This document shows, in pieces, positions 23,791 through 52,360 of a stretch of 64,000 nucleotides of DNA. How positions within the stretch are numbered: the first letter of the stretch is position 1; every line of letters starts with the position of its first letter. This DNA is from Microbacterium sp. ET2 (lineage in GTDB: Bacteria; Actinomycetota; Actinomycetes; Actinomycetales; Microbacteriaceae): contig NZ_CP128170.1 in NCBI RefSeq assembly GCF_030347395.1, positions 2,170,001 to 2,234,000 of the forward strand, given 5' to 3'. The notes beneath the pieces were generated by a model, which was given only the letters and a program-made list of their open reading frames with translations, did not search any database and was not told the origin of the DNA. The translations under genes were made by a program, and so were the position numbers.

Positions 23791-25092
23791 ATGCTTCTCG
23801 AACGAGACATCCTCCAATCCATCGGCTTCCGCAACGTCCGTGAGGGCGACCGCGTGACCGGCTTCCAGATCCGCCTGCGCATGCCGTCGTATCGCGGCAT
23901 GGCGGCCTCGCTCATCGACGGGGTCGCGGTGCGCGTCGGCGACCTCCTCGATGTCGGTCCCGACGTTCCACGCTGGACGCTGCAGGGCCGCACGTACACC
24001 CTCCAGGAGTTGTGGGACTCCGAGGGTGTGCGGTGGCCGCTGGAGGATGCCGCGGTGATCACCGTTCCCTTCGACGGCGGCCTCCCGGAGGGCACCCACG
24101 AGGTGTCGATCGAGCTGCGGCTGCGGATGTCGTACATCCCCGTCGAGCATCAGCCGTCGACATACCGCGAGACGCGGCACATCACCCTGAGCTCCGACCT
24201 CGACGGCGGGCCCTTCAAGTACGGCGTCTCGCTGTACAGCTTCATGCACGACTTCGGCACGGTGCTCGACCTCGAGTCGGCGCTCGCACACGTCGCCGAC
24301 GTCGGCGCCACCGGGGTCGAGATCCTCGGGGAGGGGCACATCGCGGGCTACCCCGAGCCGTCGACCGCCTGGATCGACACGTGGTTCACGCTGCTGGAGA
24401 AGTACCGGCTCGAGCCGACGAACTACGGCTCGTGGATCGACACGCGCCTGCACTCCAGCGGCGCGAACGCGCGCGACCTCACCGCCGCTGAAGGAGCAGC
24501 GATGCTCCAACGCGACCTGCGGCTCGCCCGTCGCCTGGGATTCGGGTTCGTCCGTCCCAAGATCGGTGTGATCTCCAGCGACCTCGTGCCTCACCCGACG
24601 TGGACGGAGGCCGTGGAGCGGAGCCTCGACCTCGCCGCCGAGCTCGACGTGATCATCTGCCCCGAGATCCACTCGCCGACCCCCATCAAGCACGAGGTGG
24701 TCGACGACTACATCGGGCTCATCCAGCGCACCGGCACGAAGCATTTCGGTCTGCTGCTGGACACCGGCATCTTCCAGGACCGGCCGATTCCGCTCCGCCC
24801 CGGGGAGCTTCCGGGTCAGCGCCCGGCCTTCCTCGACGGCATCGGGGTCGACCCGGCCGACATCGCCGACATCGCCGAGTACGTCGTGTTCATCCAGGCG
24901 AAGTTCCACGACATCGACGAGGACCAGGTCGATCAGCAGATCCCGTGGGAGCCGGTGCTCCGTGCTCTGAAGGACGCGGGGTACTCCGGCTACCTCTCCA
25001 GCGAGTACGAGGGCGATCGCGCGCCGTGGCGCGCGATCGAGCAGGTGCGAAGGCAGCACAGCCTCATCCGCCGCATCGCCTCCGGCCTCTGA
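23791..25092 (+). CDS. Single-chain C-glycoside deglycosidase (beta-alpha fusion)
   Basis: A 433-aa natural fusion. Residues about 1-135 are a DUF6379-type beta domain (FQIRLRMPSYRGMAASLIDG, then THEVSIELRLRMSYIPV); about 140-433 are a xylose-isomerase-like TIM barrel (KYGVSLYSFMHDFGTVLDLE). Likely metal ligands are Glu in CPEIHSPT, Asp in LLLDTGIF, Gln in FIQAKFHDI and Glu in LSSEYEGDRA; the third position is Gln where most paralogues here have His. CarBC/DgpBC/DfgAB enzymes use separate subunits to cleave the C-C bond of 3-oxo-C-glycosides. It is the first gene of a five-gene operon. The exact substrate is unknown. Confidence 0.82.
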   Translation: MLLERDILQSIGFRNVREGDRVTGFQIRLRMPSYRGMAASLIDGVAVRVGDLLDVGPDVPRWTLQGRTYTLQELWDSEGVRWPLEDAAVITVPFDGGLPEGTHEVSIELRLRMSYIPVEHQPSTYRETRHITLSSDLDGGPFKYGVSLYSFMHDFGTVLDLESALAHVADVGATGVEILGEGHIAGYPEPSTAWIDTWFTLLEKYRLEPTNYGSWIDTRLHSSGANARDLTAAEGAAMLQRDLRLARRLGFGFVRPKIGVISSDLVPHPTWTEAVERSLDLAAELDVIICPEIHSPTPIKHEVVDDYIGLIQRTGTKHFGLLLDTGIFQDRPIPLRPGELPGQRPAFLDGIGVDPADIADIAEYVVFIQAKFHDIDEDQVDQQIPWEPVLRALKDAGYSGYLSSEYEGDRAPWRAIEQVRRQHSLIRRIASGL

Positions 25093-25105
25093 CGAGGAGC
25101 AGCCC

Positions 25106-26591
25106 ATGCCCAATGGACTCATCGCCGACGACAGCCTCCGCCCGCACCCCGAGGGCTTCGCGCTCGCGCTCACCCTCCCCTGGTACCGAAGCCTTTGGCT
25201 GTCGTCGGTCTCGACGCTCGCCGTCACCATCGACGGCGCGAAGGTCGCGGCATCCGATCTGTCCTTCGAGCTCGCCGGGCGCCGCTACGCGATCGACGAG
25301 CTGTCCGCGCAGAGCGAGACGCTGTGGTTCCTGCAGGCGCATCCCCTGCTCATCGTCCGCCGCGACGAGAAGGTCACCGTCGGCGACACCCACGCGGTGA
25401 CGGTTCACGGCGAGCTGCGGCTGCCCTACATGCAGATCGCGCCCGGGGACGAGGGCGGCCCGGGCCTGTACGTGCCCAATGTGGTGCATCAGACGCTCAC
25501 CCTCACGGCCACCGACGTCGACGCCGCGCCTCCCGCGCTCGTGCGCGATGTCGCACCGCCGCCGTCTGCGACCGACAGTGATCCGTTCCAGCTGGGGCTG
25601 ACCCTCTACTCCGCGAGCGCCGAATTCCGCGCTGGCTGGTACGACTTCGATGGCCTGCTCGACCGGGTCGCCGAGCTCGGCATCGGCCCCGGCATCGAGA
25701 TCGTCGCGTCGCAGATGGTACCCACCTACCCGGTCGTCTCGGATGACTTCGTCCGCACGTGGCGCGACGCCTTCGACCGGCACGGGTTCGCGGCGAGCCT
25801 CCTTCGGTGCCAACCTCGACATGGGCCGACGCCGCGATCGCGACATGACGCCCGACGAGGAGTTCGCGTTCTCGGTGGAGATGTTCCGCGGCGCGAAGAA
25901 GCTCGGGTTCCCTCTGGTGCGCATCCAATCGGCGAAGCCCGCGCTGCTGCGGCGGCTGCTTCCGGTGGCCGAGGAACTCCAGCTCACGCTCGCCTACGAG
26001 ATCCACGCGCCACTCGGTCCGAACGCGCCCGAGATCATGAAGGTGCGCGACACCTACGCCGAGCTCGATTCGCCCCTTCTCGGGTTCGTCGCCGATTTCT
26101 CCTCGACGATGCACGCGATGTCGCCGACGCTGCTGCGCGCGGTGCGGCGGGCGGGGCTCGACGACCCTGCCGTGGAAAGGCTGCAGGAGATCTGGGCCAC
26201 AGACGCGTCGATGCGCGATCGGCAGCAGGAGTTCATCGCCTATCTGCACGGCCGGGATTTCGATCCCGGGCGGCTCGGGGCCTTCGCCCACCTCGCTTTC
26301 AACATGCACGGCCACGTCGACCCGCGGGAGTGGGCCGACATCATGCCGCAGATCCTCCACGTGCACGCGAAGTTCTACGACATCGACGACAACGGGCAGG
26401 AGCCGGCGATCGACTATCCCGCCCACGTGCGGGTGTTCGTCGAGGGAGGCTACCGCGGCTTCTGGTCCAGCGAGTGGGAGGGTCACGCGTTCGCCGAGCT
26501 CGGCGAGGTCGACCCGCTCCTCCTCGTCCGGCGACAGCATGACCTCATCCGCTCGGCGATGCGGGCTGCGACGGAGCCGGCACGTGCCTGA
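25106..26591 (+). CDS. Second single-chain beta-alpha C-glycoside deglycosidase (frameshifted)
   Basis: About 494 aa. The beta domain (ALTLPWYRSLWLSSVSTLAV, then LRLPYMQIAPGDEGGPGLYV) is joined by an Ala/Pro/Asp linker to a TIM barrel with NLDMGRRRDRDMTPDEE, YEIHAPLG, VADFSSTMHA, LHVHAKFYDID and WSSEWEGHAF. The break is at 25795-25801 (GAGCCTC for GAGCTC) and removing one C gives FAASSFGANLDMG. The two parts match the separate beta at 44310 and alpha at 42475, so this is the fused form of that pair. RBS GAGGAG precedes it. Confidence 0.8.
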
Positions 26592-27501
26592 GACAGACAC
26601 TGATTTTCGCTCCCTGCCCCTTACGGAGCTTCTGCGGCTGCTGCGTGAGGAGGGTGAGCCGTCCGACCCGCGCACCGACATCGACACCGCATCTCTGAAA
26701 CGCCGGTTCCCGAGGCTCGCCGAGGTGGCGATGCGCGACCTCTCGTTCGACGGTGGCGAGGGTCGTGCGGTCCCGGCGAGGGTGTATCGGGATGTCACGG
26801 CGCCGGCCTCGGGCCGGGCGCTCGTCTGGGTCCACGGCGGGGCCTTCATCGGCGGTCACCTCGACATGCCCGAGTCGCACTGGGTCGCGATGGAGCTCGC
26901 CGCACGCGGCACTCCTGTCCTCACGCTCGACTACGTCAAGTGCCTCGGTGCAACCCACTTCCCCGAGCCCTCCGACGACGTGCTGGCAGGATGGTGGTGC
27001 GCTGTCGCCCACGCCGAGGAGCTCTTCGGGCTCCCTGCATCCGCGGTTCTTCTTGGCGGCGCGAGCGCTGGCGGCAATCTGACCGCAGGGGTCACCGCCC
27101 GCCTGCGTGACGCAGGAGACGCCATGCCGGCGGGGCTCGTCCTCGTCTACCCTGTGGTTCATCCCAACGGGCCGGAGGCCACCGCCGAGGTCGACCCGTC
27201 CTCCCGCCACGGGGAAATGGTGCTGAATTTCGCGGGCACGATCGAGGTCCTCGCCGACCCGCATGCGTTCGCGGCGCTCGGTCCGGCGGCGGGCTTCCCG
27301 CCGACGCTGGTGTTGGTGTGCGAGCACGACGAGCTCCGCCCGTCAGGCGAGGCGTTCGCACGGCAGCTCGGCGATGCCGGCGTGCCCGTCTCGCTGCGGG
27401 TGGAGCCCGGCGCAGCGCACGGTCACATCAACGAGCCGTCCGACCCCACCGCCCTCCCCACCGTCAAGGCGATCGCGGACTGGATCGGAGGACTTCCGTG
27501 A
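26584..27501 (+). CDS. Alpha/beta hydrolase, HSL-type esterase
   Basis: A 305-aa hormone-sensitive-lipase-type esterase. Oxyanion motif HGG in LVWVHGGAFIGGH, nucleophile Ser in GGASAGGNLTA, acid in VCEHDELRPSG and His in GAAHGHINEPSD. The GTG start overlaps the upstream stop. In this operon it may remove acyl groups from decorated glycosides before the glycosidases act, which is inferred. Confidence 0.85.
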   Translation: MPETDTDFRSLPLTELLRLLREEGEPSDPRTDIDTASLKRRFPRLAEVAMRDLSFDGGEGRAVPARVYRDVTAPASGRALVWVHGGAFIGGHLDMPESHWVAMELAARGTPVLTLDYVKCLGATHFPEPSDDVLAGWWCAVAHAEELFGLPASAVLLGGASAGGNLTAGVTARLRDAGDAMPAGLVLVYPVVHPNGPEATAEVDPSSRHGEMVLNFAGTIEVLADPHAFAALGPAAGFPPTLVLVCEHDELRPSGEAFARQLGDAGVPVSLRVEPGAAHGHINEPSDPTALPTVKAIADWIGGLP

Positions 27502-29204
27502 GCACGTCAGGCAATCACTCACGTTGGGCGTTCGACGACGACATGCGTCTGCGACAGGGGAACGAGCTTCGTCTCCTTCTCGGCGGGCAGGTACACAACT
27601 CGTCCAGTTCCTCGGCGGCGACAATCCGCCGGTCATTCGCGCACACCCGACGCCTGGGCGCCAATGCGGTGCTCGCCCCGGTCAGCTGGGCGCTGACAGA
27701 GCCGCAGGAGGGCGTCTTCGATTTCGACCTCGTGGACACGATGATCGAGGAGGCGCGCCGGCTGAGTCTGCGCCTCGTGCCACTGTGGTTCGGTGCGTTC
27801 AAGAACGCTGCCTCAACGTACGCGCCGCGGTGGGTTCGCGCAGACCTCGAGAGGTTTCCGCGAGCCGTGGTGCAAGCCAAGGTCCGCGGCAACGCGTTCC
27901 ACTACTCCGGAGTGACGCCCACACCCGTGCTTTCGGTGTTCAGCGAGAACCTCCGCGCGGCCGATGCTGCGGCGTTCGAGGCGTTCCTGGCACACGTGGC
28001 GAAGGTTGACGCGACCGACGTCGTCGCCATGGTCCAGGTCGAGAACGAGTCGGGCATCCTCCGCGACAGCCGAGATCGAAGCGCACTCGCCGAGGAGGCT
28101 TGGGCCGGCCAGGTCCCGTCCGAACTGATCGTGCTCGCACGCGCTGGTCGCGCCGACTCGTTGCTGCGCGAGCTCTGGACAGCGCACGGGGAACGGGAGA
28201 GCGGAACCTGGGCCGAAGTGTTCGGTGAGGGGTCCGGAGCCGACGAGGTCTTCATGGCGTGGTCCATAGGCTCATACGTGCAGCACGTCGCCGAACGTGG
28301 ACGTGTGCACAGGCGTGTCCCGATGTACACCAACGCGTGGCTCGGGCCGCAGCCGGGGCAGGACGAGCCGGGACGGTGGCCGAGTGGCGGCCCCGCCAGC
28401 CGGGTCGTGGATGTATGGCGCACTGCGGCTCCCTCGCTGTCGTTCGTCGCCCCCGACATCTACGTCGACGACGCTGATTCGGCGATGCGGGTCTACACCT
28501 CCCACAACCAGCCGTTCTTCGTCCCGGAAAGCCGGTTGCGCGCAGGCGAGCTCGTCCGTGCGATCGGCAGCTACCGCGCCATCGGCTGGTCGGCGTTCGG
28601 CATCGATGGCGCGAACCCCGATGGCCAGGTCGCGGCCGTGCTCACGTTTCTCAGCGCCCTCGAGTCGGACATCGCCGAGGCTCAGCGCGCCCGTCGCATC
28701 GGAGCCGTCGTCGTCGAGCGCGGCTCTTCACCTGCCGAGACTCGGGTCGGCGATCTCACGGTCTCGGCCCGCGGCCTCAACGACATCGTGCGCACTTTCC
28801 TCCTCGACGTCGGTGTGCAGCTGCCCGACGCAGCACTCCCCGTTCCTGACGAGACGCTCCCGCAAGAGCCCGTCCCGACGCCCGGTGAGCAGCGACCGTT
28901 CGCCCTGGTCTTCGCAGTAGCCGACGACGAGCTGGTCGTCGTGGGACAGGGGGTCAAACTGGACTTCGCCACTTCCGACGGCGATGTCGAAATCGACTCC
29001 GTCACGGAACTGCTCGTCGAAAAAGGAGAGCTCGTGCCGGGCAGGGTCCTCAATGGCGATGAACGCCTGCAGGTCGTGCCGGTGGACCGCGTCGGCGCTG
29101 CGAAAATCACTCTGCTCAGGCTTTCTCAGAATCAATGGGTCCGGGCGGTTCGCCCGAGCGTCACCGAGTGGCGTGCAGGAGGGGGACGTGGATCAGGAAG
29201 CTGA
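27498..29204 (+). CDS. GH35/DUF5597-type beta-galactosidase-like glycosidase
   Basis: A 568-aa clan GH-A glycosidase. N-terminal TIM barrel with LGANAVLAPVSWALTEPQEG; acid/base Glu in MVQVENESG; nucleophile Glu in QPFFVPESR. The last about 130 residues form a beta-rich domain consistent with DUF5597. There is no signal peptide, so it is probably cytoplasmic and acts after uptake. The GTG start overlaps the esterase stop (GTGA). Likely trims O-linked hexosyl units; substrate not assignable. Confidence 0.8.
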   Translation: MSTSGNHSRWAFDDDMRLRQGNELRLLLGGQVHNSSSSSAATIRRSFAHTRRLGANAVLAPVSWALTEPQEGVFDFDLVDTMIEEARRLSLRLVPLWFGAFKNAASTYAPRWVRADLERFPRAVVQAKVRGNAFHYSGVTPTPVLSVFSENLRAADAAAFEAFLAHVAKVDATDVVAMVQVENESGILRDSRDRSALAEEAWAGQVPSELIVLARAGRADSLLRELWTAHGERESGTWAEVFGEGSGADEVFMAWSIGSYVQHVAERGRVHRRVPMYTNAWLGPQPGQDEPGRWPSGGPASRVVDVWRTAAPSLSFVAPDIYVDDADSAMRVYTSHNQPFFVPESRLRAGELVRAIGSYRAIGWSAFGIDGANPDGQVAAVLTFLSALESDIAEAQRARRIGAVVVERGSSPAETRVGDLTVSARGLNDIVRTFLLDVGVQLPDAALPVPDETLPQEPVPTPGEQRPFALVFAVADDELVVVGQGVKLDFATSDGDVEIDSVTELLVEKGELVPGRVLNGDERLQVVPVDRVGAAKITLLRLSQNQWVRAVRPSVTEWRAGGGRGSGS

Positions 29205-30681
29205 CGGACCGGGAGCTGCGCGGAGCTACACCAACCCAGTCCTCGGGGGAGACCGGCCCGACCCCGCGGTCATCAAGGTGGGGGACGAGTACTGGATGAC
29301 GTACTCGTCGTTCGAGGCGGCTCCCGGGCTGCTCCTGTACCGCTCGGACGACCTCGTCACCTGGACGTACGTCACAGCCGCGCTCCCCGAACCTCTCGGC
29401 AGCACGTTCGCCGTCGACGTCGCCGAGCATGACGGCCGCTTCTTCATCTACATCCCCTTCATCCCGACACCGTGGTCGTCCCTCACCGACGCCTCGATCT
29501 TCGTCATCCACGCCGACGCGATGGCCGGTCCCTGGTCGGAGCCGATCGATCTCGGCGTCCGGGGAGCCATCGACCCCGGCCACGTGGTCGGCGAGGACGG
29601 CCGGCGCTACCTGTTCCTCAGCGGCATTCGCCGGGTCGCCCTGTGCGACGACGGACTGTCGACCGTGGGGGAGATCGAGCAGGTCTACGACGGCTGGCGG
29701 TACCCCGACGACTGGATCACCGAGGCCTACGCCCTCGAGGGCCCCAAGCTGTTCCGGCGCGGGGAGTGGTTCTACCTCGTCAGTGCGGTCGGCGGCACGG
29801 CTGGCCCGCCGACCGGTCATATGGTGATCGTCGCCCGATCGCGGTCGGTGCACGGTCCGTGGGAGAACCACCCGGGTAACCCGATCGCTCGCACCCGCAG
29901 CGCGGACGAGCGCTGGTGGTCGCGCGGGCACGCCACGATCCTCGAAGTCCCGGGCGAGCAGTGGTACATGCTGTCGCACGGGTACGAGAACGGCTACCGC
30001 ACTCTCGGTCGGCAGATCCTGCTCGAGCAGGTTGCGTGGACGGAGGACGGATGGCCCGTGGCGGCCGCCGACGACGTCGGCGGTGCGCTTCCCCTCCCCG
30101 AGGGGGCAGCCCCGCAGCATCCGCTTCTCCCACCGGCCGAAGAGATCCCCGGCTTCCGCCTCGGGGAGCGCTGGGCCTTCCACGCCCCGTTACCGGGCGA
30201 GTCCGGGCGCCTCACCGTCGCCGACGACGTGCTGGTCCTCCGCGGCAAGGGGGTGGGGCCCGGAGACTCCTCGCCGCTCGCCCTCGTCACCGGCGACCAC
30301 GCTTACGAGATCGAGGTCGACGTCGAGCTGGAGGGGCCCGTCGAGGCGGGGCTGCTGCTGTTCTTCAACGGGCGCCTCTTCTGCGGGATGGGCATCGACG
30401 GTGCGGGGATGCGCAGCTACTCCGGGGGCATCCGCACGCACTGGCGGGAGCCCGCGCCGGCCGGGCGCCGCCTGTCGCTTCGCCTGCGGAACGACCACCA
30501 CATCGTCACGGGCTGGTGGCGCGAGCAGGGCGGCGAGTGGACACGGCACGGCGTCCGCTACGAGACGTCGGGCTACCACGCCAACACGATCGGCGACCTG
30601 CTGAGCCTCCGTCCGGCCATCTACGCCGCCGGTGACGGGTCGGCGCGCTTCCGCGACCTGCGCTACCGCCGCCTGGCCTGA
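29188..30681 (+). CDS. GH43-like beta-xylosidase/arabinofuranosidase
   Basis: A 497-aa protein with a five-bladed propeller and a C-terminal beta-sandwich (about residues 320-495) as in GH43. Catalytic base Asp is in GGDRPDPAVIKV, the pKa-setting Asp in GAIDPGHVV, and acid Glu in YALEGPKLF. GTG at 29188 is preferred because AGGAGGGGG lies just upstream; it overlaps the previous gene by 17 bp. No signal peptide. Removes pentosyl groups by family; the actual sugar is unknown. Confidence 0.85.
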   Translation: MDQEADGPGAARSYTNPVLGGDRPDPAVIKVGDEYWMTYSSFEAAPGLLLYRSDDLVTWTYVTAALPEPLGSTFAVDVAEHDGRFFIYIPFIPTPWSSLTDASIFVIHADAMAGPWSEPIDLGVRGAIDPGHVVGEDGRRYLFLSGIRRVALCDDGLSTVGEIEQVYDGWRYPDDWITEAYALEGPKLFRRGEWFYLVSAVGGTAGPPTGHMVIVARSRSVHGPWENHPGNPIARTRSADERWWSRGHATILEVPGEQWYMLSHGYENGYRTLGRQILLEQVAWTEDGWPVAAADDVGGALPLPEGAAPQHPLLPPAEEIPGFRLGERWAFHAPLPGESGRLTVADDVLVLRGKGVGPGDSSPLALVTGDHAYEIEVDVELEGPVEAGLLLFFNGRLFCGMGIDGAGMRSYSGGIRTHWREPAPAGRRLSLRLRNDHHIVTGWWREQGGEWTRHGVRYETSGYHANTIGDLLSLRPAIYAAGDGSARFRDLRYRRLA

Positions 30682-30784: not shown

Positions 30785-31750
30785 CTATACCGCGACGGCC
30801 GCCTCGGGCATCGAGGCGACGTGGGCGCCGGAGTCGACGATGCGTCCGGCCTCGACGAAGAGGTCGCGCATCCAGGCGTGCTCGGGGTCGCGCCCGTGCA
30901 CCGGATGCCACCACAGGGCGTTCGTGAGCGGTGTCGGCTCGAACGGCAGCCCGACCGCGCGCACCCCGCCGGCCCGGGTGGCGAGGTGGGCGATCGCCTT
31001 CTGGATGACGCCGATGCGGCGCGTTCCGGCGATGAAGTGGCTCATCGCGAGGAAGCTCTCCACGATTGCCTCGATGCGCGGCTCGATCCCGAGCTGCTGC
31101 ACCTGCCTCCCCGCCGAGGTGAACGCCGAGCGGGTCTGATACGTCATCACCCAGGGGAGCTCGGCGAGCTGGTCACGGGTGAGTTCGCTGCCGACCTCGT
31201 CGTTATCGGTGGCGACGAGGGCGGTCCAGTCGTCATGCCAGAGGTCGACGAACGGATGATCAGAGATCGGCCCGTGGGGGATGATCATGCCGTCCACCGA
31301 CCGCAGCCGGGTCGCCGCGTCGTCGACGATCGTGGGGTTGTGGAGCATGAAACGGAAGCGCACGCCCGGCGCTCGCTCGGCGGCGAGGCGCGACACGACA
31401 CTGCCGACGGTGACGAAGCCGTAGTCGGAGCCGTAGATGGAGAACTCACGCGTGGACTCCTCGGGTGACCAGGTCGCCTGCGACTCGAAGACGCGACGGG
31501 CGGCTTCGAGGGCCGAGGTCGTGTGCTCGCTGAGGCGTACGGCGAAGGGCGTCAGTTCGTAGGTGTTGCCGCGGCGGGCGAGGATCGGGTCGCCGAAGTG
31601 GGTGCGCAAGCGTGCGAGCGAGGCGCTGAGGGCGGGCTGGCTGAGGTGCAGCCGCTCCGCGGCCCGGGTGACGCTCCGCTCGGTGAGGAGAGCGTCCAGG
31701 GAGACCAGCAGGTTCAGGTCGAGGCGGGAGAGCGGCATCTGGTCGGTCAC
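30785..31750 (-). CDS. LysR-family transcriptional regulator
   Basis: About 321 aa. HTH: TERSVTRAAERLHLSQPALS, then LARLRTHFGDPILARRGNTY; the substrate-binding domain follows from about residue 100. The fingerprint DPILARRG resembles the NodD/NahR/LinR branch, which responds to aromatics. GTG at 31750 is chosen because AAGGAT lies upstream. It faces the end of the glycosidase operon (103-bp convergent gap, 30682-30784, nothing clear). Target unknown. Confidence 0.87.
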   Translation of the reverse strand: MTDQMPLSRLDLNLLVSLDALLTERSVTRAAERLHLSQPALSASLARLRTHFGDPILARRGNTYELTPFAVRLSEHTTSALEAARRVFESQATWSPEESTREFSIYGSDYGFVTVGSVVSRLAAERAPGVRFRFMLHNPTIVDDAATRLRSVDGMIIPHGPISDHPFVDLWHDDWTALVATDNDEVGSELTRDQLAELPWVMTYQTRSAFTSAGRQVQQLGIEPRIEAIVESFLAMSHFIAGTRRIGVIQKAIAHLATRAGGVRAVGLPFEPTPLTNALWWHPVHGRDPEHAWMRDLFVEAGRIVDSGAHVASMPEAAVAV

Positions 31751-31774
31751 GGCGGTGTGATCCTTCGGTCGGGG

Positions 31775-31789
31775 ATACACCAACCGTAT
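31775..31789. promoter_or_regulatory. LysR box upstream of the LysR gene
   Basis: ATAC-N7-GTAT inverted repeat, a perfect T-N11-A LysR motif, 24 bp upstream of the chosen start. It probably serves autoregulation; no divergent gene is present to share it. Confidence 0.55.
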
Positions 31790-31855
31790 CAATCGGCTCT
31801 ATGTTCGTGCTATCCCTTATCGGCGCCAGCGATGCGCCTGGTCGCACGAGACAAA

Positions 31856-31921: not shown

Positions 31922-33232
31922 TTACTCACCCCATGCGGCATCCATCTCATCGAGCACCTGGTCGACGGTCTTCTGTCCGGTGAGCAGACCCTGGACACCC
32001 ACGCCGAGCGTGTCGTAGACGTCGGGGTTCGGCCACGTGGCGTTCGGAAGACCCGCGTAGTCGCCGTTCTCGAGCAGCTGGCCGATCGGCGAGTAGATCG
32101 GCAGCAGGTTGTCGGCCGTGGCGCCGGTGATCGGGACGAAGCCCGACAGGTCGGCGAAGGCCTGCGACTCCTCGGGGGTCGCCAGCCAGTCGAGGAACTC
32201 CTGTGCGGACGCCTTCACGGCGTCGTCAGCCGAGGCGTTCACGGCCCAGGCGTAGTTGGCCGAGGCCAGCCCGTAGGGCGCGCCGCCGTCTGCGGGCGGG
32301 AAGGCCTGGACCGTCAGGTCGAGGCCGGTGCCGGCGCTGATCGACGTCGCCGCCGAGCCGGGAACCGCCGCGGTGAGCGAGGCCTGCGATCCGATGCCCT
32401 GCGTGATGGAGTCGAAGGTGCCGCCGGCGACACCGTCCTGGAAGCAGCCGCCCTCGTTCATCTCCAGGATGTCCTCGAGCACGTCGCGCCATCCGCTGTC
32501 GGCGAAGGTCACATCGCCCGCCGCGCGCTGCTCGTTCCAATCGGGGGTCTCGGCGTACACGCGGGTCGCGGAGATCAGCATCGAGAACAGGCCGGTGTTG
32601 AACGGCACGCTTCCGGCGAGCACCGTGAAGGTCTTGCCGCCGTCGCGTGCCGTGGTGCACGCCTCGAGCAGGTCGTCGTAGGTCTCGGGGTAGGCGTCGA
32701 TACCGACCTCTTCGCCGCCGGCGCCGTTGTAGATGAAGCCGACAGGCACGAGCGCGGCGGGCTGGGCGTACACATCACCGTCGAAGGAGTACTCGGCCTC
32801 GGTCCCGGCGGGGATCGTGCCGCTGGAGGTCTCGTTCAGCGGCTCGAGGAAGCCCGCCTCTGCGAGGTTGACGACCGAGATCGGCTGCCCGGTGCCGGGT
32901 GCGAGCACCATCATGTCGGCGGCGTTCCCGGCCTGCAGCTGGGTGGTCACCTGCGTGTTGTACGCGTCGGAGGGGTAGGGGATCACCTCGATCTCGACGC
33001 CGGTCTGCTCGGTGTACTTCGCGGCGGTCTCGGCCCAGTAGTCGTCCTGGTCGTTGGCCTGAGCGACCATGAGGCTGAAGTTCGCAGAGGTCTCGTCGCC
33101 GGAGTCTCCTCCGCTGTCGGACCCGCCGTTGTCGGAACCGCCGCCCGAGCAGCCCGCGAGGACGAGAGCGCCGGCGGCGCCCACAGCCAGGAGGGACCAA
33201 CGGAGGCGCCGGATGTCGGAATGCTGTGACAT
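31922..33232 (-). CDS. ABC sugar-binding lipoprotein
   Basis: A 436-aa extracellular solute-binding protein (family 1). Signal peptide with lipobox LVLAGC at residues 23-28, then a Gly/Ser/Asp linker and the binding fold (KYTEQTGVEIEVIPYPSDAY, LQAGNAADMMVLAPGTGQ). It probably delivers glycosides or sugars to the permeases at 36728-38530, which are on the other strand 3.5 kb away. An operator-like 23-bp site lies 78 bp upstream of its start. Confidence 0.9.
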   Translation of the reverse strand: MSQHSDIRRLRWSLLAVGAAGALVLAGCSGGGSDNGGSDSGGDSGDETSANFSLMVAQANDQDDYWAETAAKYTEQTGVEIEVIPYPSDAYNTQVTTQLQAGNAADMMVLAPGTGQPISVVNLAEAGFLEPLNETSSGTIPAGTEAEYSFDGDVYAQPAALVPVGFIYNGAGGEEVGIDAYPETYDDLLEACTTARDGGKTFTVLAGSVPFNTGLFSMLISATRVYAETPDWNEQRAAGDVTFADSGWRDVLEDILEMNEGGCFQDGVAGGTFDSITQGIGSQASLTAAVPGSAATSISAGTGLDLTVQAFPPADGGAPYGLASANYAWAVNASADDAVKASAQEFLDWLATPEESQAFADLSGFVPITGATADNLLPIYSPIGQLLENGDYAGLPNATWPNPDVYDTLGVGVQGLLTGQKTVDQVLDEMDAAWGE

Positions 33233-33309: not shown

Positions 33310-33332
33310 GATATGCCGCTTTTCGACATAAC
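33310..33332 (-). promoter_or_regulatory. CTTAnGT-N9-ACnTnAG operator, site 2
   Basis: On the minus strand GTTATGT, then CGAAAAGCG, then GCATATC. It starts at the last base of the GH106 stop codon and lies upstream of the binding-protein gene. Confidence 0.5.
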
Positions 33333-36556: not shown

Positions 36557-36635
36557 GCGCCGATCCTGCCACCGCGCCGCATCGGGGCGGCACCCTCCCG
36601 CGCCTCGCGCCCACTTATATCCGATATCGCAAAAA

Positions 36636-36658
36636 CTAATGTGCGGTTTCGACGCAAG
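36636..36658 (-). promoter_or_regulatory. CTTAnGT-N9-ACnTnAG operator, site 3 (divergent promoter)
   Basis: On the minus strand CTTGCGT, then CGAAACCGC, then ACATTAG. It lies in the 171-bp gap between the divergent GH106 and permease genes and could control both. A second CTTATAT arm lies 23 bp away at about 36613. Confidence 0.55.
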
Positions 36659-36727
36659 CGTGTGATCCTGAATCGACGGCGCCCCGAAACTGCTGCGGGC
36701 GCGCAGACGACGACGAGGTCAGGGCGA

Positions 36728-37690: not shown

Positions 37691-37693
37691 GAC

Positions 37694-43524: not shown

Positions 43525-44299
43525 CACCGCCACCGACGTCTCGGTCGCGGAGCTCGCCGCCGAGCTCGCCGCCCTCCGCGAGGAGGTCGTCGCCGCCCGC
43601 GCTTTCGCGCAGCGCGCCGAGGACCGTGGACAGGTCGAGAACCTGTTCAACCGCTACATGTACCTCCACAACGCCTTCGAGGACGAGCAGATCATCCCGC
43701 TCTGGGTGAAGGAAGGGACGGAGGGCATTCGCGCCCGCTACACCAACGCCGGTCAGTACACGACGTGGAAGAGCGTCACCGAGTACCACCGTGGTCGGCC
43801 CCACCCGGAGGGCAAGCTCATCCTGCACGCGACGACGACCCCGGTCATCGAGGTAGCTGCCGACGGCAAGACCGCCAAGGGCGTGTGGTTGATGGCAGGA
43901 ACCGAGTCCGGCCTCACGGACCCCGAGGTCGCTGAGGCCTTCCCCGACATGTACTCCCCCGACGAGGTGCTCGGCAAGAAGGTCTGGGCGCACTGGGTGT
44001 GGTGCAAGTACGCCATCGACTTCCTCAAGCAGGACGGCGAGTGGAAGTTCTGGAAGTTCCGCTGCTACGAGCTCGCCCGCGCGCCGTTCGAGGAGAACTG
44101 GGTCAGCTTCGGCCTGAAGAACCAGGGCGCGTTCGACCTCGACCTCATGTATTTCGGCGATGACGGCAAGCCGGTCTTCATGCCGCCCGCCGACGAGCCC
44201 GTGCCGTCGACCAACCACCCGTACAGCCCCGAGACGGTGCAGAAGCTCGAGCCGGCCCCGCCGGTTCCGCACGACACCTTCACCGACACCTACGCCTGA
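43517..44299 (+). CDS. NTF2/SnoaL-like protein
   Basis: A 260-aa protein: an N-terminal helix that may form a coiled coil (VAELAAELAALREEVVAARA), then a SnoaL-like cone (QVENLFNRYMYLHNAFEDEQ, KVWAHWVWCKYAIDFLKQDG, EWKFWKFRCYELARAPF). It overlaps the alpha gene by 8 bp and is 10 bp from a beta gene, so it is embedded between two deglycosidase subunits. NTF2-like folds include isomerases and lyases; an accessory or aglycone-acting role is possible. Function not known. Confidence 0.72.
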   Translation: MSDTATDVSVAELAAELAALREEVVAARAFAQRAEDRGQVENLFNRYMYLHNAFEDEQIIPLWVKEGTEGIRARYTNAGQYTTWKSVTEYHRGRPHPEGKLILHATTTPVIEVAADGKTAKGVWLMAGTESGLTDPEVAEAFPDMYSPDEVLGKKVWAHWVWCKYAIDFLKQDGEWKFWKFRCYELARAPFEENWVSFGLKNQGAFDLDLMYFGDDGKPVFMPPADEPVPSTNHPYSPETVQKLEPAPPVPHDTFTDTYA

Positions 44300-44309: not shown

Positions 44310-44727
44310 ATGGCCACGCACGACTCCCTCTTCCGCGACGACGACGTCCGTCGCACCGATGACGGCCTGGCCGTCTCGCTGCAGATCCCCTGGTACCGGA
44401 GTCTCTGGCTCTCTGCGGTCGACGACGTCGCTGCGACCGTCAACGGCGTGGAGGTCGCCACCGAAGACCTGCGCTTCGTGCTCGAGGGACGTGAGTACCG
44501 CATCGAGGAGCCTCCCCGAGCAGTGGGACACCCTCTGGTTCGTCGCCGAGCGCCCCGATGTCCTGATCCGCCTCGATGACCCGCCTGCCGCCGGTGAGAA
44601 GGTCACCGTCGGGGTGGTGCTCACCATGCGCCTGCTGTACATGCAGATCATGCCGGGCGTGGACGGCGGACCCGGCCGGTACGTGACCAACCGTGTGCCT
44701 GTGGAACGGGAGCTGGTGCTGGCATGA
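44310..44727 (+). CDS. C-glycoside deglycosidase beta subunit, DUF6379 (frameshifted)
   Basis: About 138 aa. LAVSLQIPWYRSLWLSAVDD and MRLLYMQIMPGVDGGPGRYV closely match the beta domain of the fused 25106 protein. The break is at 44508-44514, where GAGCCTC should be GAGCTC, giving YRIEELPEQWDTLWFVAE. Likely partner of the alpha at 42475. ATGA overlap with the next oxidoreductase. Confidence 0.8.
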
Positions 44728-45911
44728 CCAGGCCGCTCCGCGTCGCCATGATCGGCTACGGCTTCATGGGGGCTGCGCACTCGGTGGGCTGGCGCCAGGC
44801 GCCGCGGGTGTTCACCCTGCCCGAAGCCGTCGAGATGGCCGTCGTGGTCGGTCGAAACGCGCGGGCGGTGGCGGATGCCGCGGCCCAGTGGGGCTGGCAG
44901 GAGTCGGCGACCGACTGGCGCGAGGTGATCGCACGTGACGACATCGACATCGTCGACATCGTGACGCCCGGCGACTCGCACGCCGAGATCGCGATCGCCG
45001 CCCTGGAGGCGGGCAAGCACGTCCTGTGCGAGAAGCCGCTGGCGAACACGGTCGCAGAGGCCCAGGCGATGACGGATGCCGCGGAGCGGGCGTCCGAACG
45101 CGGGATGCGCGCCATGGTGGGCTTCACCTATCGGCGGGTTCCGGCGGTCACGCTGATGCGGGACATGATCGCCGAGGGTGCCGTGGGAACGGTGCAGCAG
45201 GTGCGGGCTGCGTATCGGCAGGACTGGCTCGTCGATCCGGCGATGCCGCTGGCGTGGCGCCTGCAGAAGGAGCACGCCGGAACCGGCGCGCTCGGCGACA
45301 TCGGCGCGCACATCATCGACATGACGCAGTTCGTCACCGGGCAGGCAGTTGAGCGCGTGAGCGGCACGCTGGAGACGATCGTCTCGGAGCGTCCGCTGCA
45401 GGCGGCCGGCTCGGGCCTCAGCGGCGAGGCCGGTGCGGGTACGGGCACGGTCACCGTCGACGACCTCGCGATCTTCACCGGCCGACTCTCCGGAGGGTCG
45501 CTCGCCTCCTTCGAGGCGACGCGCTTCGCGACGGGGCGCAAGAACGCGCTCACCGTCGAGGTCTCCGGTGACCGCGGCGCGCTCGCGTTCGACCTCGAGG
45601 ACCTCAACAGCCTGCGCTACTACGACCGCACAGCCCCCGAGGGGCGGCAGGGCTTCACCCAGATCCTCGTCACCGAAGCCGTGCACCCGTACGTGGCGGC
45701 ATGGTGGCCGGCCGGCCACATGCTCGGATATGAGCACGGCTTCAGCCACCAGGTGGTCGATCTCGTCACCGCGATCGCCGAAGGCACCGACCCGCACCCG
45801 AGCTTCGCCGAAGGCCTCAGCGTGCAGCGGGTGCTCGACGCGGTCGAGCGGTCGAGCGAGAACGACGCCGCCTGGACGCCGGTCGCGACCAACGCGCCGG
45901 TCGCGGTCTGA
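44724..45911 (+). CDS. Gfo/Idh/MocA-family oxidoreductase
   Basis: A 395-aa NAD(P)-dependent sugar dehydrogenase. Rossmann motif [17 protein letters not shown] motif in [10 protein letters not shown]; the C-terminal domain starts with [16 protein letters not shown] and includes [14 protein letters not shown]. Translationally coupled to the beta subunit. Members of this family reduce or oxidise 3-keto sugars (for example ThuB), fitting the handling of sugars released from C-glycosides; the substrate is inferred. Confidence 0.87.
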
Positions 45912-45934: not shown

Positions 45935-46942
45935 ATGGCACGACCGATCACGTTGTTCACGGGTCAGTGGGCGGATCTTCCGTTCGAGGAGGTGGCGCGG
46001 CTGGCGGGTGAGTGGGGGTACGACGGGCTGGAGATCGCCTGCTGGGGTGATCATCTGGATGTGTCGCGGTGGGATGACGCGGAGTACGTGGCGTCGCGGA
46101 AGGAGATTTTGGAGCGCAACGGTCTGGGGGTGTGGGCGATCTCGAATCATCTGACCGGTCAGGCGGTGTGCGATGACCCGATCGATCAGCGGCATCGTGA
46201 CATCCTGTCCGACCGGGTGTGGGGCGACGGCGATCCCGAGGGGGTCCGGCAGCGCGCGGCGGAGGATCTGAAGGACACCGCGCGGATGGCGGCGAAGCTC
46301 GGTGTGATGACGGTGAACGGGTTCAGCGGGTCATCCATCTGGAAAGCGGTGGCGATGTTCCCGCCGGCCTCGGACGAGTGGATCGACGCGGGGTACCAGG
46401 ACTTCGCCGACCGGTGGAACCCGATCCTCGACGTGTTCGAGGAGGAGGGCGTGCGGTTCGGTCTCGAGGTGCACCCGTCCGAGATCGCCTACGACTACTG
46501 GACCGCCAAGCGCACCCTCGAAGCGATCGGCCACCGGGCATCGTTCGGCCTCAACTTCGACCCGTCGCACTTCATGTGGCAGCAGCTGGATCCCGTCGCC
46601 TTCGTCCTGGACTTCGCCGACCACATCTTCCACGTGCACGTCAAGGAATCGATCACGAACCTCGACGGCCGCAACGGCGTGCTGGGCTCCCACCTGGGGT
46701 GGGCCAACCCGCGCCGGGGGTGGACGTTCGTCTCGACCGGTCACGGTGCCGTGCCGTGGGAGCCGCTGTTCCGTGCCCTGAACGCGATCGGCTACGACGG
46801 ACCCACGAGCGTGGAGTGGGAGGACGCCGGCATGGACCGCCTCATCGGCGCCCCCGAAGCCCTGCAGTTCGTCCGCAAGCTCAACGCCATCACCCCACCC
46901 GCCGCAGCGTTCGACGCCGCGTTCTCGACCAGGGCGGATTGA
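45935..46942 (+). CDS. Sugar phosphate isomerase/epimerase-like TIM-barrel protein
   Basis: A 335-aa xylose-isomerase-like protein. Ligand candidates are Glu in FGLEVHPSE, Asp in NFDPSHFMW, His in [10 protein letters not shown] and Glu in TSVEWEDAG. It begins [20 protein letters not shown], a type common beside Gfo/Idh and ThuA genes. The first about 450 bp use more G- and T-ending codons (GCG, CGG, GGT, GTG) than the rest, hinting at a mosaic gene. Probable keto-sugar isomerase; substrate unknown. Confidence 0.82.
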
Positions 46943-46945: not shown

Positions 46946-47818
46946 ATGACCGACATCCTGAACGTCCTCATCCTCTCGGGCCACATGACGCGAGAGCACG
47001 ACAACGAGCACCGCAGCTTCCGCCTGCACAACCAGTGGATCACGACCCTGCTCGAGGACACCGGCCGCTTCAAGGTGCGCGTCGTGGAAGACCCGCGAGG
47101 GCTCGGTGCCGACATCATCGACAAGTACGACGTGCTGATCGTCGTCTTCGAGGGACGCGACGGCTTCTTCGAGAAGGCCGTCGGGTTCGGCGCGGAGACC
47201 GACGCGGCGATCCTGAAGTTCGTCCACGACGACGGCAAGGGCATCGTCTGGTTCCACGGCTCGGCCGCACAGGAGGACCGCTGGGGCTACCCCGAGGAGT
47301 ACAACATCATGCGCGGCGCCAAGCTCAGCGCGTATGAGACCGGCCTGCGTCCCCGCCCGTGGGGCGAGGCACAGCTCGACACGGTCGAGCCGCGGCATCC
47401 GATCACCGAAGGGATCAGCGCCCGCTGGACGGTGACCGGTGACGACATCCTCACCGGCGTCGACCTCTACGAGGGCGCCCAGGTGCTGCTGACGACCTTC
47501 GACGATCTCGAGGCGTACGAGAACGCGCCGATGTGGCCGATGTCGCACTACCCGGTCGAGATCCCCGAGGGGGGGATCGCTGCGCTCAACGGCATGAACA
47601 CCGACCAGCCGATCGCCTGGATCAACGAGTACGGCGAGGGGCGGTCGTTCACGATCACGATCGGACACGACATCGACACGTTCCGGCGCATCGAGTTCAT
47701 CCGCATGTTCCCGCGCGGTGTCGAATGGGCGGCCACCGGCGAGGTCACCCTCGAGGGTCCCGATCGCCGTGGCGAGCGCCGCTTCCTCCCCTGGCCCTAC
47801 TACAACCGCGAGGGCTGA
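46946..47818 (+). CDS. ThuA-like domain protein
   Basis: A 290-aa protein with the class I amidotransferase-like ThuA fold: LNVLILSGHMTREHDNE, IVWFHGSAAQEDRWGYPEEY, and GHDIDTFRRIEFIRMFPRGV near the C-terminus. In rhizobia ThuA works with the Gfo/Idh protein ThuB on 3-keto disaccharides. Here it is flanked 3 bp on each side by a TIM-barrel isomerase and a Gfo/Idh gene, forming a likely 3-keto-sugar processing unit. Confidence 0.83.
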   Translation: MTDILNVLILSGHMTREHDNEHRSFRLHNQWITTLLEDTGRFKVRVVEDPRGLGADIIDKYDVLIVVFEGRDGFFEKAVGFGAETDAAILKFVHDDGKGIVWFHGSAAQEDRWGYPEEYNIMRGAKLSAYETGLRPRPWGEAQLDTVEPRHPITEGISARWTVTGDDILTGVDLYEGAQVLLTTFDDLEAYENAPMWPMSHYPVEIPEGGIAALNGMNTDQPIAWINEYGEGRSFTITIGHDIDTFRRIEFIRMFPRGVEWAATGEVTLEGPDRRGERRFLPWPYYNREG

Positions 47819-47820
47819 AC

Positions 47821-49483: not shown

Positions 49484-49516
49484 CGGTCAGCGCGCTGTCA
49501 TCCCGAAGACGCGCAT

Positions 49517-49651: not shown

Positions 49652-49731
49652 CACGCAGCCTGCCGGCCCGGCCGCCTCCGGCCCGCGATGTCACACCCCC
49701 GTGCGACGATGCGCACGGGAGAGGGAGTGAC

Positions 49732-50940: not shown

Positions 50941-50955
50941 CGACCGAGACCCCGC

Positions 50956-51960
50956 TCACTCGATCCCGAGGGCCTTGCGGGCCCCTGCGATGTGCGCCCG
51001 CGTCATCTCGGTGGGGTCGGCGTCGAGCCACTCATGACCGCCCCATTCGCTGGTCAGTACGCCGTCGAACCCGCTCCCCGCGAGCTGCGCGCCGAGGTCT
51101 CGCACCGGCTGCCACACGCGGCCGTCCGCATCCTCGAGATCCCAGAATTTGAGGTGGAATCCAGCCACCAGGGGCAGAACCGGACGGATGACGTCGACCG
51201 ACGACCGCCCGAAGCGGACGACCATGTCCATGTACAGCGTGCGAACCGGTCCCGGGACCCCGCCCGACCGCAGCAGCTGGACGACTACGCCCAGCGTGGC
51301 GGGATCGCGCCAGTGGTCGCGCACGCGCTCACGCAGTGAAGCCGGCACACCCCCGCGCTCGAGCTCGGAGAGGTAGCTGACCGGCACCGCGGGCATGAGC
51401 ATGCTGATGTCGATGAGGAGGCGCACGTGGCGATCGTCAAGTTCGGCGATCACGTCATACGCTTCCGCCGACGTCGGAGACTGCGGAGTCTGCGACCCCT
51501 GCGCCTCCTCGAACAGCACGAGATCGAGCTCGTGGAGGAGGGGCAGCAGTCGTCGGAGGAGCTCGGGCCCCGCCTGCCCGATCGGCAGGCGCACACCGAT
51601 GGCACCGAGTGCATGCGCGGCATGCAGCTGGGGCACGAGGAACTCCAGGCGCTCCTCCTCGGTGCGACGCCGCGTCGGCGACATCCAGTCATCCAGACTC
51701 GCGCCGACGATGGTGACCCGCCCTCCGACCGCCGCGAGGTGCTCGCGCAGGAGCGCGGCCTCGTCGACACGGGTGACCGGGAACGATCGCCACAGCTGGC
51801 CGGGCTCGACCTCGACGAGCGTGCTCACCCCCTCGGCGACGATGTCCACGGTGATGTCGGTCGCGGCGTGCTCGGCGCGGATGACCTCAGGGGTCCAGTT
51901 GAAGGCGCTCGCCCCGATCTTCAGGGTGGGGGGAAGGGATGCTGCGGCATCAGGCGACAT
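50956..51960 (-). CDS. C-glycoside deglycosidase alpha-like TIM-barrel protein (third split pair)
   Basis: A 334-aa xylose-isomerase-like barrel, more divergent than the other alphas. Ligand candidates are Glu in LVLFEEAQGS, Asp in LLIDISMLMPA, His in AGFHLKFWDLED and Glu in LTSEWGGHEW. Start at MSPDAAASLPPTLK, overlapping the beta gene by 11 bp. It converges on dinB with a 15-bp gap and no terminator hairpin. Confidence 0.78.
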   Translation of the reverse strand: MSPDAAASLPPTLKIGASAFNWTPEVIRAEHAATDITVDIVAEGVSTLVEVEPGQLWRSFPVTRVDEAALLREHLAAVGGRVTIVGASLDDWMSPTRRRTEEERLEFLVPQLHAAHALGAIGVRLPIGQAGPELLRRLLPLLHELDLVLFEEAQGSQTPQSPTSAEAYDVIAELDDRHVRLLIDISMLMPAVPVSYLSELERGGVPASLRERVRDHWRDPATLGVVVQLLRSGGVPGPVRTLYMDMVVRFGRSSVDVIRPVLPLVAGFHLKFWDLEDADGRVWQPVRDLGAQLAGSGFDGVLTSEWGGHEWLDADPTEMTRAHIAGARKALGIE

Positions 51961-52360
51961 CGCGCGACACCGTCCCCATGGCGGGCGCGTCCAGCAGAAG
52001 GGTGCGCGCGGAGGAGAACGGGAGGCTGAGCGGCCCGTCACCACCCGCGTCGAGGTAGGGCACGATCAGCCGGAAACCGAGCATCACCTCATGGACGCCG
52101 GGTGCCAGCATCCGTCGTCCCTCGAGCCGGAGTCGATCCTGCACGAACCACCAACCGCGCTCGAAGGCGAGCGCGGAGGGGGCGACGCGGCGATCGCCGA
52201 TCCCCACAGCCGACACGCCGACGGGATCGCCGTCGACGGCCAGCTCCAGCGAGTTCACGCTCCACACCGGCAGCGACCTGATCCACGGCAGAGAGATCCG
52301 CAGCTCGAAGCCGACGTCCGTGGAGCTCAGGGCGTCATCGCGCAGGCTGGGCAGACTCAT
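51950..52360 (-). CDS. C-glycoside deglycosidase beta-like protein (DUF6379)
   Basis: A 136-aa protein: FELRISLPWIRSLPVWSVNS, ERGWWFVQDRLRLEGRRML and HEVMLGFRLIVPYLDAGGDG keep the LPW-R-L, WWF and P-Y elements of the other betas. It precedes and overlaps the alpha-like gene, forming a third split pair. An operator-like site lies 42 bp upstream of its start. Confidence 0.78.
   Translation of the reverse strand: MSLPSLRDDALSSTDVGFELRISLPWIRSLPVWSVNSLELAVDGDPVGVSAVGIGDRRVAPSALAFERGWWFVQDRLRLEGRRMLAPGVHEVMLGFRLIVPYLDAGGDGPLSLPFSSARTLLLDAPAMGTVSRDVA

What the first reader, a model, noticed from the sequence alone, without database searches (positions are those of the whole stretch)
23791..52360. 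Five different C-glycoside deglycosidase systems in one island
Beta (DUF6379) and alpha (TIM-barrel) modules occur five times: fused at 23791 and 25106, split at 40957/41358, 44310/42475 and 51950/50956. Described systems (Car, Dgp, Dfg) generally have one or two pairs. The divergence between pairs suggests each handles a different aglycone or sugar. With the CarA-like oxidases, importer, glycosidases and keto-sugar enzymes it looks like a complete and versatile C-glycoside utilisation locus.
Basis: partly seen in the sequence, partly recalled or inferred. Interest (0 to 1): 0.85.

Follow-up and report, generated by a model that had tools for sequence, protein, structure and literature searches.

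The report
Conserved five-member C-glycoside breakdown island
A soil-type bacterium carries, as many of its relatives do, a fixed set of five related enzyme modules for stripping sugars off plant C-glycosides; four look like known sugar-cleaving enzymes, while the fifth has kept the metal site but lost the cleaving residues, so it probably does something else in the same pathway.

Summary
Five beta (PF19906/CGDB) plus alpha (TIM-barrel) modules lie at the stated places. Four betas pass Pfam's cut-off; the fifth is confirmed by an ortholog profile and by fold. Two modules (the fused one at 25106, the beta at 44310) change frame here; the relatives read keep them open and other genes of this assembly split likewise, so I suspect assembly indels.

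The island is not unique. All five types occur in conserved order in 13 of 14 fetched same-genus (Microbacterium) genomes. PF19906 occurs in 80 of 366 genomes of the genus, each with 3-7 matches. Type A is nearly a solved M. testaceum enzyme; type D is an AgCGD2 ortholog.

Five cleaving systems is only partly supported. Module E keeps all five metal ligands but has Gln for catalytic His149, Gly for Glu307 and Ile for the phenol-activating Tyr39-beta; the alpha changes are fixed in 120 of 120 listed homologs. E is under purifying selection and travels with the other CGDs (77 of 80 positive genomes, 0 of 286 others). My bold, untested guess is a 2-keto/3-keto-C-glycoside isomerase that returns the off-pathway 2-keto form to the cleaving enzymes.

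The parts
23791..25092 (+). Type A: fused beta-alpha C-glycoside deglycosidase, intact, 433 aa
   Evidence: PF19906 107.1 bits + PF01261 58.6 bits; 8qrz_A M. testaceum CGD, E 1.7e-236
25106..26591 (+). Type B: fused beta-alpha CGD, AgCGD2-like; frame changes near 25785-25800 in this assembly
   Evidence: PF19906 55.8 bits; pieces; one frame in 14 of 14 relatives
26600..30681 (+). Accessory hydrolases: alpha/beta hydrolase, GH35/42-like with DUF5597, GH43
   Evidence: Pfam; missing from most of the 14 relatives' stretches
30785..31792 (-). LysR-type regulator
   Evidence: Pfam; present in the island of relatives
31922..33232 (-). ABC sugar-binding protein
   Evidence: Pfam
33332..36556 (-). GH106 alpha-L-rhamnosidase, accessory
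   Evidence: Pfam 732 bits; found in 3 of 14 relatives' stretches
36467..38530 (+). Two ABC permeases (36467-37690; 37694-38530)
   Evidence: Pfam
38580..39374 (+). Hydroxypyruvate-isomerase-like TIM barrel (xi1)
   Evidence: TIGR03234 153 bits, below cut-off 353; PDB 3ngf 2.4e-19
39356..40879 (+). GMC oxidase, pyranose/C-glycoside-3-oxidase-like (gmc1)
   Evidence: PF05199/PF00732; TIGR02462 216 bits, below cut-off 545
40957..41361 (+). Type C beta subunit
   Evidence: PF19906 63.9 bits; Tyr39-beta equivalent kept
41358..42467 (+). Type C alpha subunit; start overlaps the beta stop
   Evidence: PF01261; 7dnm_A 1.4e-54; catalytic set kept; overlap
42475..43524 (+). Type D alpha subunit, AgCGD2 ortholog
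   Evidence: 7dnm_A 1.5e-183, 78% identical; catalytic set kept
43457..44299 (+). SnoaL-like protein between D alpha and D beta
   Evidence: PF13577 60 bits; same place in 11 relatives
44310..44727 (+). Type D beta subunit; frame changes near 44505 in this assembly
   Evidence: PF19906 37.4 bits on the first piece; one frame in 13 of 13 relatives with type D
44724..45911 (+). Gfo/Idh/MocA oxidoreductase, levoglucosan-dehydrogenase-like (gfo1)
   Evidence: NF052479 357 bits, below cut-off 650
45935..46942 (+). TIM-barrel homolog of 2-hydroxy-3-keto-glucal hydratase (xi2)
   Evidence: 8ro4_A 3.5e-36; 2zds_A 8.1e-154
46946..47818 (+). ThuA-family protein
   Evidence: PF06283 95 bits
50956..51960 (-). 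Type E alpha subunit: metal ligands kept, His149 to Gln, Glu307 to Gly, Tyr17 to Phe
51950..52360 (-). Type E beta subunit: Tyr39-beta equivalent is Ile; its 3' end overlaps E alpha
   Evidence: profile match 8umc_B 7.9e-14; PWIR in 13 of 13
52414..53688 (-). ROK-family protein (kinase or NagC-type regulator) upstream of E beta
   Evidence: PF00480 195 bits; NagC and glucokinase models below cut-off
53760..54839 (+). Second Gfo/Idh/MocA oxidoreductase (gfo2)
   Evidence: PF01408
55774..61057 (+). Aglycone-ring genes: extradiol dioxygenase, FAA hydrolase (two frames), cyclase, FAD monooxygenase, amidohydrolase
   Evidence: Pfam/NCBIfam
62066..63664 (+). MFS transporter; an ORF at 63695-65287, ending outside the window, sits where relatives have a second GMC oxidase
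11319..23607 (.). Flanking 4-hydroxybenzoate/protocatechuate genes: pobA, protocatechuate dioxygenase beta, pcaB-, pcaI-, pcaF- and pcaR-like
   Evidence: NCBIfam; pcaB and pcaF matches below their cut-offs

Best explanation
This is a conserved C-glycoside catabolic island of Microbacterium and related Microbacteriaceae. Inferred pathway: importer; GMC oxidase makes the 3-keto-C-glycoside; four metal-dependent alpha/beta deglycosidases (A, B, C, D) release the aglycone by beta-elimination; the xi2 hydratase and a Gfo/Idh/MocA reductase return the 2-hydroxy-3-keto-glucal to glucose; flanking ring-cleavage genes take the aglycone. A to D differ most likely in C6/C8 regiochemistry and aglycone fit (D and B AgCGD2-like; A EuCGD-like; C more distant, nearest AgCGD2 and the D. 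aerius enzyme). The fifth pair E is a CGD-derived paralog that keeps the metal site and the alpha/beta architecture but not the residues that carry out C-C cleavage. Most likely it is not a C-glycoside lyase but an enzyme for the keto-sugar intermediate; my leading guess is a metal-dependent 2-keto/3-keto-C-glycoside isomerase working through the same enediol. Shown here: anatomy, conservation, residue losses, co-occurrence. Inferred: every reaction, and above all the isomerase role.
For: Families and fold. Residues: at AgCGD2 positions 147/149/179/269/271/305/307, types B, C, D read E-H-D-H-K-E-E; A reads E-H-D-Q-K-E-E in 14 of 14; E reads E-Q-D-H-K-E-G in 14 of 14 and in 120 of 120 listed homologs, the window's own included. 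Q149 and G307 occur together in 47 of 47 fetched sequences, some of them from one genome fetched twice. The Tyr39-beta column is Tyr in every A-D sequence aligned and Ile in 14 of 14 E. E forms one clade, 46 of 46, support 1.0. E is constrained, dN/dS 0.22 (alpha) and 0.26 (beta). A match at 1e-30 or better that is clearly E occurs in 77 of 80 CGDB-positive and 0 of 286 CGDB-negative genomes of the genus. Papers: PMC8563793 (Results and Discussion read): Ala for the base His left 10.4% (PuCGD) and 1.8% (MiCGD) activity, Ala for the helper Glu 49.8% and 1.9%. PMC10628242 (abstract and passages seen): Tyr39-beta to Phe loses >99% of C-cleavage; OGE is dead without its His; 3-keto-nothofagin turns into 2-keto, increasingly as pH rises to 7; PuCGE does not use 2-keto-nothofagin. 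Hydratase homolog.
Against: No activity of any module is shown. E could use another base or a metal-bound hydroxide, so residue loss does not prove loss of cleavage; Ala for the helper Glu left half the activity in PuCGD (PMC8563793). The isomerase guess has no direct homology support: E's closest folds are the CGD alphas, and hhalign of E with the island's two other isomerase-like barrels was uninformative. The 2-/3-keto exchange of puerarin is spontaneous and fast (PMC10628242), so an isomerase may not be needed for every substrate. E is less constrained than A, C alpha and D alpha (0.22-0.26 against 0.05-0.10; the second piece of broken B is 0.27). Three CGDB-positive genomes of the genus lack a strong E match (G096, G213, G232), as does G420 in the family. 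In the genus search only six first-look candidates per genome were scored. Type A lacks ligand His269, so the ligand set is not strictly required. B and D beta are not open frames in this assembly, so this strain may not make them.
Confidence: 0.6

Rival explanations
1. One reading: all five pairs are deglycosidases, each for a different aglycone or sugar, E with an unusual base.
For: All five are homologous alpha/beta pairs, and E keeps the metal ligands; types are 20-52% identical; related soil and gut enzymes differ in C6/C8 specificity (PMC8563793). Ala for the helper Glu left half the activity in PuCGD.
Against: E lacks the base, its helper Glu and the phenol-activating Tyr; the two alpha changes are fixed in all 120 listed homologs and the beta change in 14 of 14. 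Ala for the base left 10.4% and 1.8% activity (PMC8563793), and Phe for the Tyr under 1% of C-cleavage (PMC10628242).
Confidence: 0.15
2. E is a non-catalytic partner: a substrate sensor, chaperone or scaffold, perhaps linked to the adjacent ROK-family protein.
For: E beta and E alpha lie directly downstream of the ROK gene on the same strand, in relatives too; dN/dS is higher than in A, C alpha and D alpha; catalytic residues are lost.
Against: All five metal ligands are kept in 120 of 120 listed homologs, which a mere scaffold would not need.
Confidence: 0.2
3. E is a pseudogene-like remnant of a duplicated deglycosidase.
For: Catalytic residues lost; faster evolution than A, C alpha and D alpha; a stop inside in G353 and split matches in G365 and G069.
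Against: Other listed matches of the genus have no stop inside; dN/dS 0.22-0.26; the replacements are fixed in 120 of 120 listed homologs; 77 of 80 co-occurrence.
Confidence: 0.04
4. The frame changes in B and D beta are real and this strain is losing part of the island.
For: 8 of the 14 split genes in 196 kb lie inside the 64-kb window; the relatives read have B and D beta in one frame.
Against: 6 of the 14 lie outside the window; the pieces of both genes are still 91-98% identical to intact orthologs with dN/dS 0.02-0.27. Assembly indels explain this more simply.
Confidence: 0.2

Closest known systems
Microbacterium testaceum C-glucosyl deglycosidase, PDB 8QRZ/8UN2
   Same: Type A: same fused beta-alpha layout, E 1.7e-236 over residues 1-431 of 433; both have Gln at the His269 position
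   Different: A deposited structure of one enzyme; I found no held paper on it
AgCGD2 (AgCarB2-C2) of Arthrobacter globiformis, PDB 7DNM/7DNN
   Same: Type D alpha 78% identical, catalytic set kept; the paper reports activity on one C8-glycoside only of those tested (PMC8563793)
   Different: In the island D alpha and beta are separated by a SnoaL-like gene; type B is a fused relative, 56% identical to AgCGD2 over its barrel part
CarBC (MiCGD), AgCGD1, MtCGD, PurBC
   Same: Soil actinobacterial alpha/beta C-C cleaving enzymes; [quoted passage not shown]
   Different: Mori et al. report one pair in Microbacterium sp. 5-2b; sequences not compared here. Type C may be this kind, since the residue at the Met249 place looks small as they describe (read by eye)
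Pseudarthrobacter siccitolerans G3Ox cluster
   Same: Oxidase with two CGD pairs nearby (PMC10646112, passages)
   Different: Two pairs, not five types in fixed order
Agrobacterium O-glycoside eliminase AtOGE and its putative hydratase
   Same: Same 3-keto, beta-elimination, hydration logic (PMC10628242, passages); xi2 is a homolog of a chain named 2-hydroxy-3-keto-glucal hydratase (8ro4)
   Different: OGE is a single-domain barrel and needs its His; E lacks it

Membership tests
C-glycoside deglycosidase (CGD), types A-D | PF19906 beta domain plus xylose-isomerase-like TIM-barrel alpha, adjacent or fused | tested here: met
   B and D beta broken in frame here, one frame in relatives
C-glycoside deglycosidase (CGD), types B, C, D | Metal ligands E147, D179, H269, K271, E305 | tested here: met
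C-glycoside deglycosidase (CGD), type A | Metal ligands E147, D179, H269, K271, E305 | tested here: not met
   Gln at 269 in 14 of 14, other four kept; solved M. testaceum CGD 8QRZ has the same Gln, so this does not exclude it
C-glycoside deglycosidase (CGD), types A-D | Base His149, helper Glu307 and Tyr39-beta | tested here: met
C-glycoside deglycosidase (CGD), types A-D | Cleaves 3-keto-C-glycosides | not testable with these tools
   needs assay
C-glycoside deglycosidase (CGD), type E | alpha/beta architecture and CGD fold | tested here: met
   below both Pfam cut-offs
C-glycoside deglycosidase (CGD), type E | Metal ligands E147, D179, H269, K271, E305 | tested here: met
   14 of 14, 120 of 120 listed
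C-glycoside deglycosidase (CGD), type E | Base His149 and helper Glu307 | tested here: not met
   Gln and Gly in all examined
C-glycoside deglycosidase (CGD), type E | Tyr39-beta that activates the phenol | tested here: not met
   Ile in 14 of 14; PWIR in 34 of 36 fused homologs, motif not found in 2
O-glycoside eliminase (OGE) | Catalytic His next to the first metal ligand | tested here: not met
   Gln in type E; His need from PMC10628242 passages
Ketose 3-epimerase-like isomerase (D-tagatose 3-epimerase kind) | Glu-Asp-His-Glu metal set with the two Glu as acid/base (recalled) | tested here: inconclusive
C-glycoside/pyranose oxidase (CarA, G3Ox), gmc1 | GMC oxidoreductase of the pyranose-oxidase sequence space | tested here: inconclusive
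   GMC Pfam met; TIGR02462 216 bits, below cut-off 545; CarA not compared

The most novel reading that the evidence does not exclude
Module E is a new activity grown out of the C-glycoside deglycosidase scaffold: a heterodimeric (in some species fused) metal-dependent 2-keto/3-keto-C-glycoside isomerase. It would return the spontaneously formed 2-keto C-glycosides to the 3-keto form that the neighbouring deglycosidases need, which would explain why it travels with multi-deglycosidase islands and was not found in genomes of the genus without them.
Probability: 0.25. Interest if true: 0.75.

Novelty: new variant of a known kind. Interest (0 to 1): 0.55.

Why it matters
Characterised C-glycoside loci that I could read about have one or two deglycosidase pairs. 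This one is an ordered set of four canonical types plus a rewired fifth, shared by part of a genus and by further genera of its family, so it offers a natural panel for learning what sets C6/C8 and aglycone choice. The fifth module points to an overlooked step: how cells deal with 3-keto intermediates that drift to unusable 2-keto forms at neutral pH. Many records of its alpha subunit carry the label 'restriction endonuclease subunit R', so it is easily missed.

Tried and rejected
Rejected: that five pairs are a peculiarity of this genome; that E-beta is outside the CGDB family because it misses the Pfam cut-off; that E is decaying.

Led nowhere: hhalign of the E-alpha profile with the island's two other isomerase-like barrels (probability 0.3 each); paper searches for 8QRZ, DUF6379, the hydratase by name and an M. 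testaceum deglycosidase found no held paper. Searches that could have shown a described five-pair locus listed none by title or start of abstract; only PMC8563793, PMC12724307, PMC10628242, PMC10646112, PMC10807413 and PMC11673046 were opened, all in part. The fused-E model aligns with 8QRZ over both domains only at rmsd 17, so its domain orientation says nothing. In one search the column at AgCGD2 position 248 is shifted for type C, so I did not use it.

Disregard: the second Fisher test used denominators that I had not counted. The first Fisher test there treats related genomes as independent, so I give the counts only.

Full report
What is there. The window is G000:C1:2170001-2234000 of a 3.6-Mb single-contig genome. 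Pfam finds the CGDB beta domain (PF19906) at 23791, 25106, 40957 and in the 44310 frame above its cut-off, and weakly at 51950; TIM-barrel alphas accompany them. I call the modules A (23791, fused), B (25106, fused), C (40957/41358), D (44310/42475) and E (51950/50956, minus strand). The PF19906 search of the own genome lists A-D only, all in this island; E is below that profile's reach.

Two modules are broken here. B changes frame near 25785-25800 and the D beta near 44505. With intact G215 proteins as queries, B is one frame in 14 of 14 same-genus relatives read (G215 itself included) and D beta in 13 of 13 that have D. Over 196 kb, 14 of 144 G215 ORFs with a match split over frames in this genome, 8 in the window and 6 outside; that scan used ORFs of 120 aa or more and did not list D beta. 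The reverse scan found 19 of 144 G000 ORFs with a match split on G215, partly the same places. I lean to assembly indels but cannot exclude real losses.

The island is standard for part of the genus. PF19906 occurs in 80 of 366 genomes of the genus, this one included; each of those has 3 to 7 matches, none 1 or 2. Of 14 relatives whose islands I fetched (chosen from the positives, not at random), 13 hold all eight parts of the five types in conserved order; G068 lacks type D and has only a distant A. In a sample of 398 genomes of the family, own genus included, 27 have PF19906, in 13 of 85 genera, mostly 3-6 copies; four have one copy and one has 11. In a sample of 396 genomes of the phylum, 5 have it including this one, 3 of them over the cut-off. 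Named records with types C and D include Leifsonia, Agromyces, Herbiconiux, Pseudolysinimonas and Amnibacterium; of these, the two Agromyces stretches show no E within 10 kb of D alpha, and Amnibacterium only a distant E-like protein (31-34%). The Stenotrophomonas-labelled contig L064 also carries type D and a Q/G alpha; I suspect a misassigned contig and did not pursue it. Mori et al. (PMC8563793, Results and Discussion read) found no CGD beyond CarBC in Microbacterium sp. 5-2b, which differs from the 3-7 seen in every positive genome here; Taborda et al. (PMC10646112, passages) report two pairs in P. siccitolerans. I did not see a five-type set described in what I read of the papers opened.

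What the modules resemble. A matches the solved fused M. testaceum CGD 8QRZ (1.7e-236; named) and next EuCGD (1.1e-60). D alpha is 78% identical to AgCGD2, the B barrel part 56%, and C about 30% to AgCGD2 and to the D. aerius enzyme. Between types, alphas are 21-52% and betas 20-51% identical.

Catalytic residues. Using AgCGD2 numbering and the residues that Mori et al. mutated, types B, C and D keep ligands E147, D179, H269, K271, E305 and the pair H149/E307. A has Gln for H269 in 14 of 14, as 8QRZ does. E keeps all five ligands but has Q149 and G307 in 14 of 14, and Phe for Tyr17. A profile search gave 693 matches at 1e-20 or better, which may include other CGD alphas; the 120 best, listed, all show the E pattern. 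Across 47 fetched alphas with either change, some from one genome fetched twice, both changes are always present. In the beta subunit, the tyrosine that Bitter et al. (PMC10628242, passages) call Tyr39-beta aligns with the Tyr of PWYR/PSYR; it is Tyr in all A-D sequences aligned and Ile in 14 of 14 E, and PWIR is seen in 34 of 36 fused E homologs with the motif not found in 2. The equation of that Tyr with Tyr39-beta is my inference from the phmmer offset of A to DgpB (query 12-119 on chain 17-123).

How it most likely works. Pathway from the papers read: the oxidase makes the 3-keto glycoside, CGD cleaves by metal-assisted beta-elimination, and the product 2-hydroxy-3-keto-glucal becomes 3-keto-glucose and then glucose. 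The island has a candidate for each step: gmc1 and probably an oxidase past the window end, A-D, xi2 (homolog of a chain named 2-hydroxy-3-keto-glucal hydratase), gfo1/gfo2, plus importer, regulators and aromatic-ring genes on both flanks. In the fetched stretches of 14 relatives, GH106 is found in 3, GH43 in 4 and the GH35-like gene in 2, so they are accessory.

What E does is inference. The three losses are those that published work ties to proton abstraction and phenol activation, although Ala for the helper Glu left half the activity in PuCGD, while the metal site that holds the keto sugar stays. Bitter et al. report that 3-keto-nothofagin turns into the 2-keto form, increasingly as pH rises to 7, and that PuCGE does not use 2-keto-nothofagin; for puerarin the exchange is fast and spontaneous, which argues against a need there. 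An enzyme that keeps the metal-held enediol but cannot cleave would suit 2-keto/3-keto exchange. In ketose epimerases two metal-bound Glu do such proton transfers (recalled); E keeps the corresponding order Glu-Asp-His-Glu. I give this about one in four. A sensor role near the ROK protein is the main alternative.

Verdict. The five modules are there; four fit known deglycosidases and the fifth fails the membership test as a cleaving enzyme while remaining a clear structural relative. The island is a known kind of system in a larger, conserved form with one new variant.

Noticed in passing
window 50956-51960 and its homologs: Many E alpha homologs are named 'restriction endonuclease subunit R' in public records, an evident misannotation; others are hypothetical proteins or sugar phosphate isomerases.
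   Followed up: partly
window 21661-23607: A thiolase (pcaF-like, its end missing) and an IclR-type regulator (pcaR-like) read as one ORF here, whereas they map to different frames of G215; part of the frame noise of this assembly.
   Followed up: partly
window 56857-57824: An FAA-hydrolase gene is split over two frames here; in G215 the two matches start a multiple of three apart.
   Followed up: no
L058-L059 (genome G352): A second, divergent CGD cluster with importer-like and GMC-like genes and an E-like alpha 33% identical that also has Q149/G307.
   Followed up: no
G722 (L111-L113): 11 PF19906 matches, some repeated with identical scores near both contig ends, perhaps an uncut circular overlap; its close type E alpha is split over frames.
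   Followed up: no
L064: A contig labelled Stenotrophomonas maltophilia carries a type D alpha 87% identical to this window's and a Q/G alpha; probably a misassigned contig.
   Followed up: no
window 43457-44299: A SnoaL-like protein sits between D alpha and D beta in 11 relatives (88-97% identical); G260 lacks it, G068 has it without type D, and G352 was not checked; function unknown.
   Followed up: no
type A in relatives: Metal ligand His269 is Gln in 14 of 14 type A enzymes aligned and in solved 8QRZ, so the published ligand set is not universal.
   Followed up: partly
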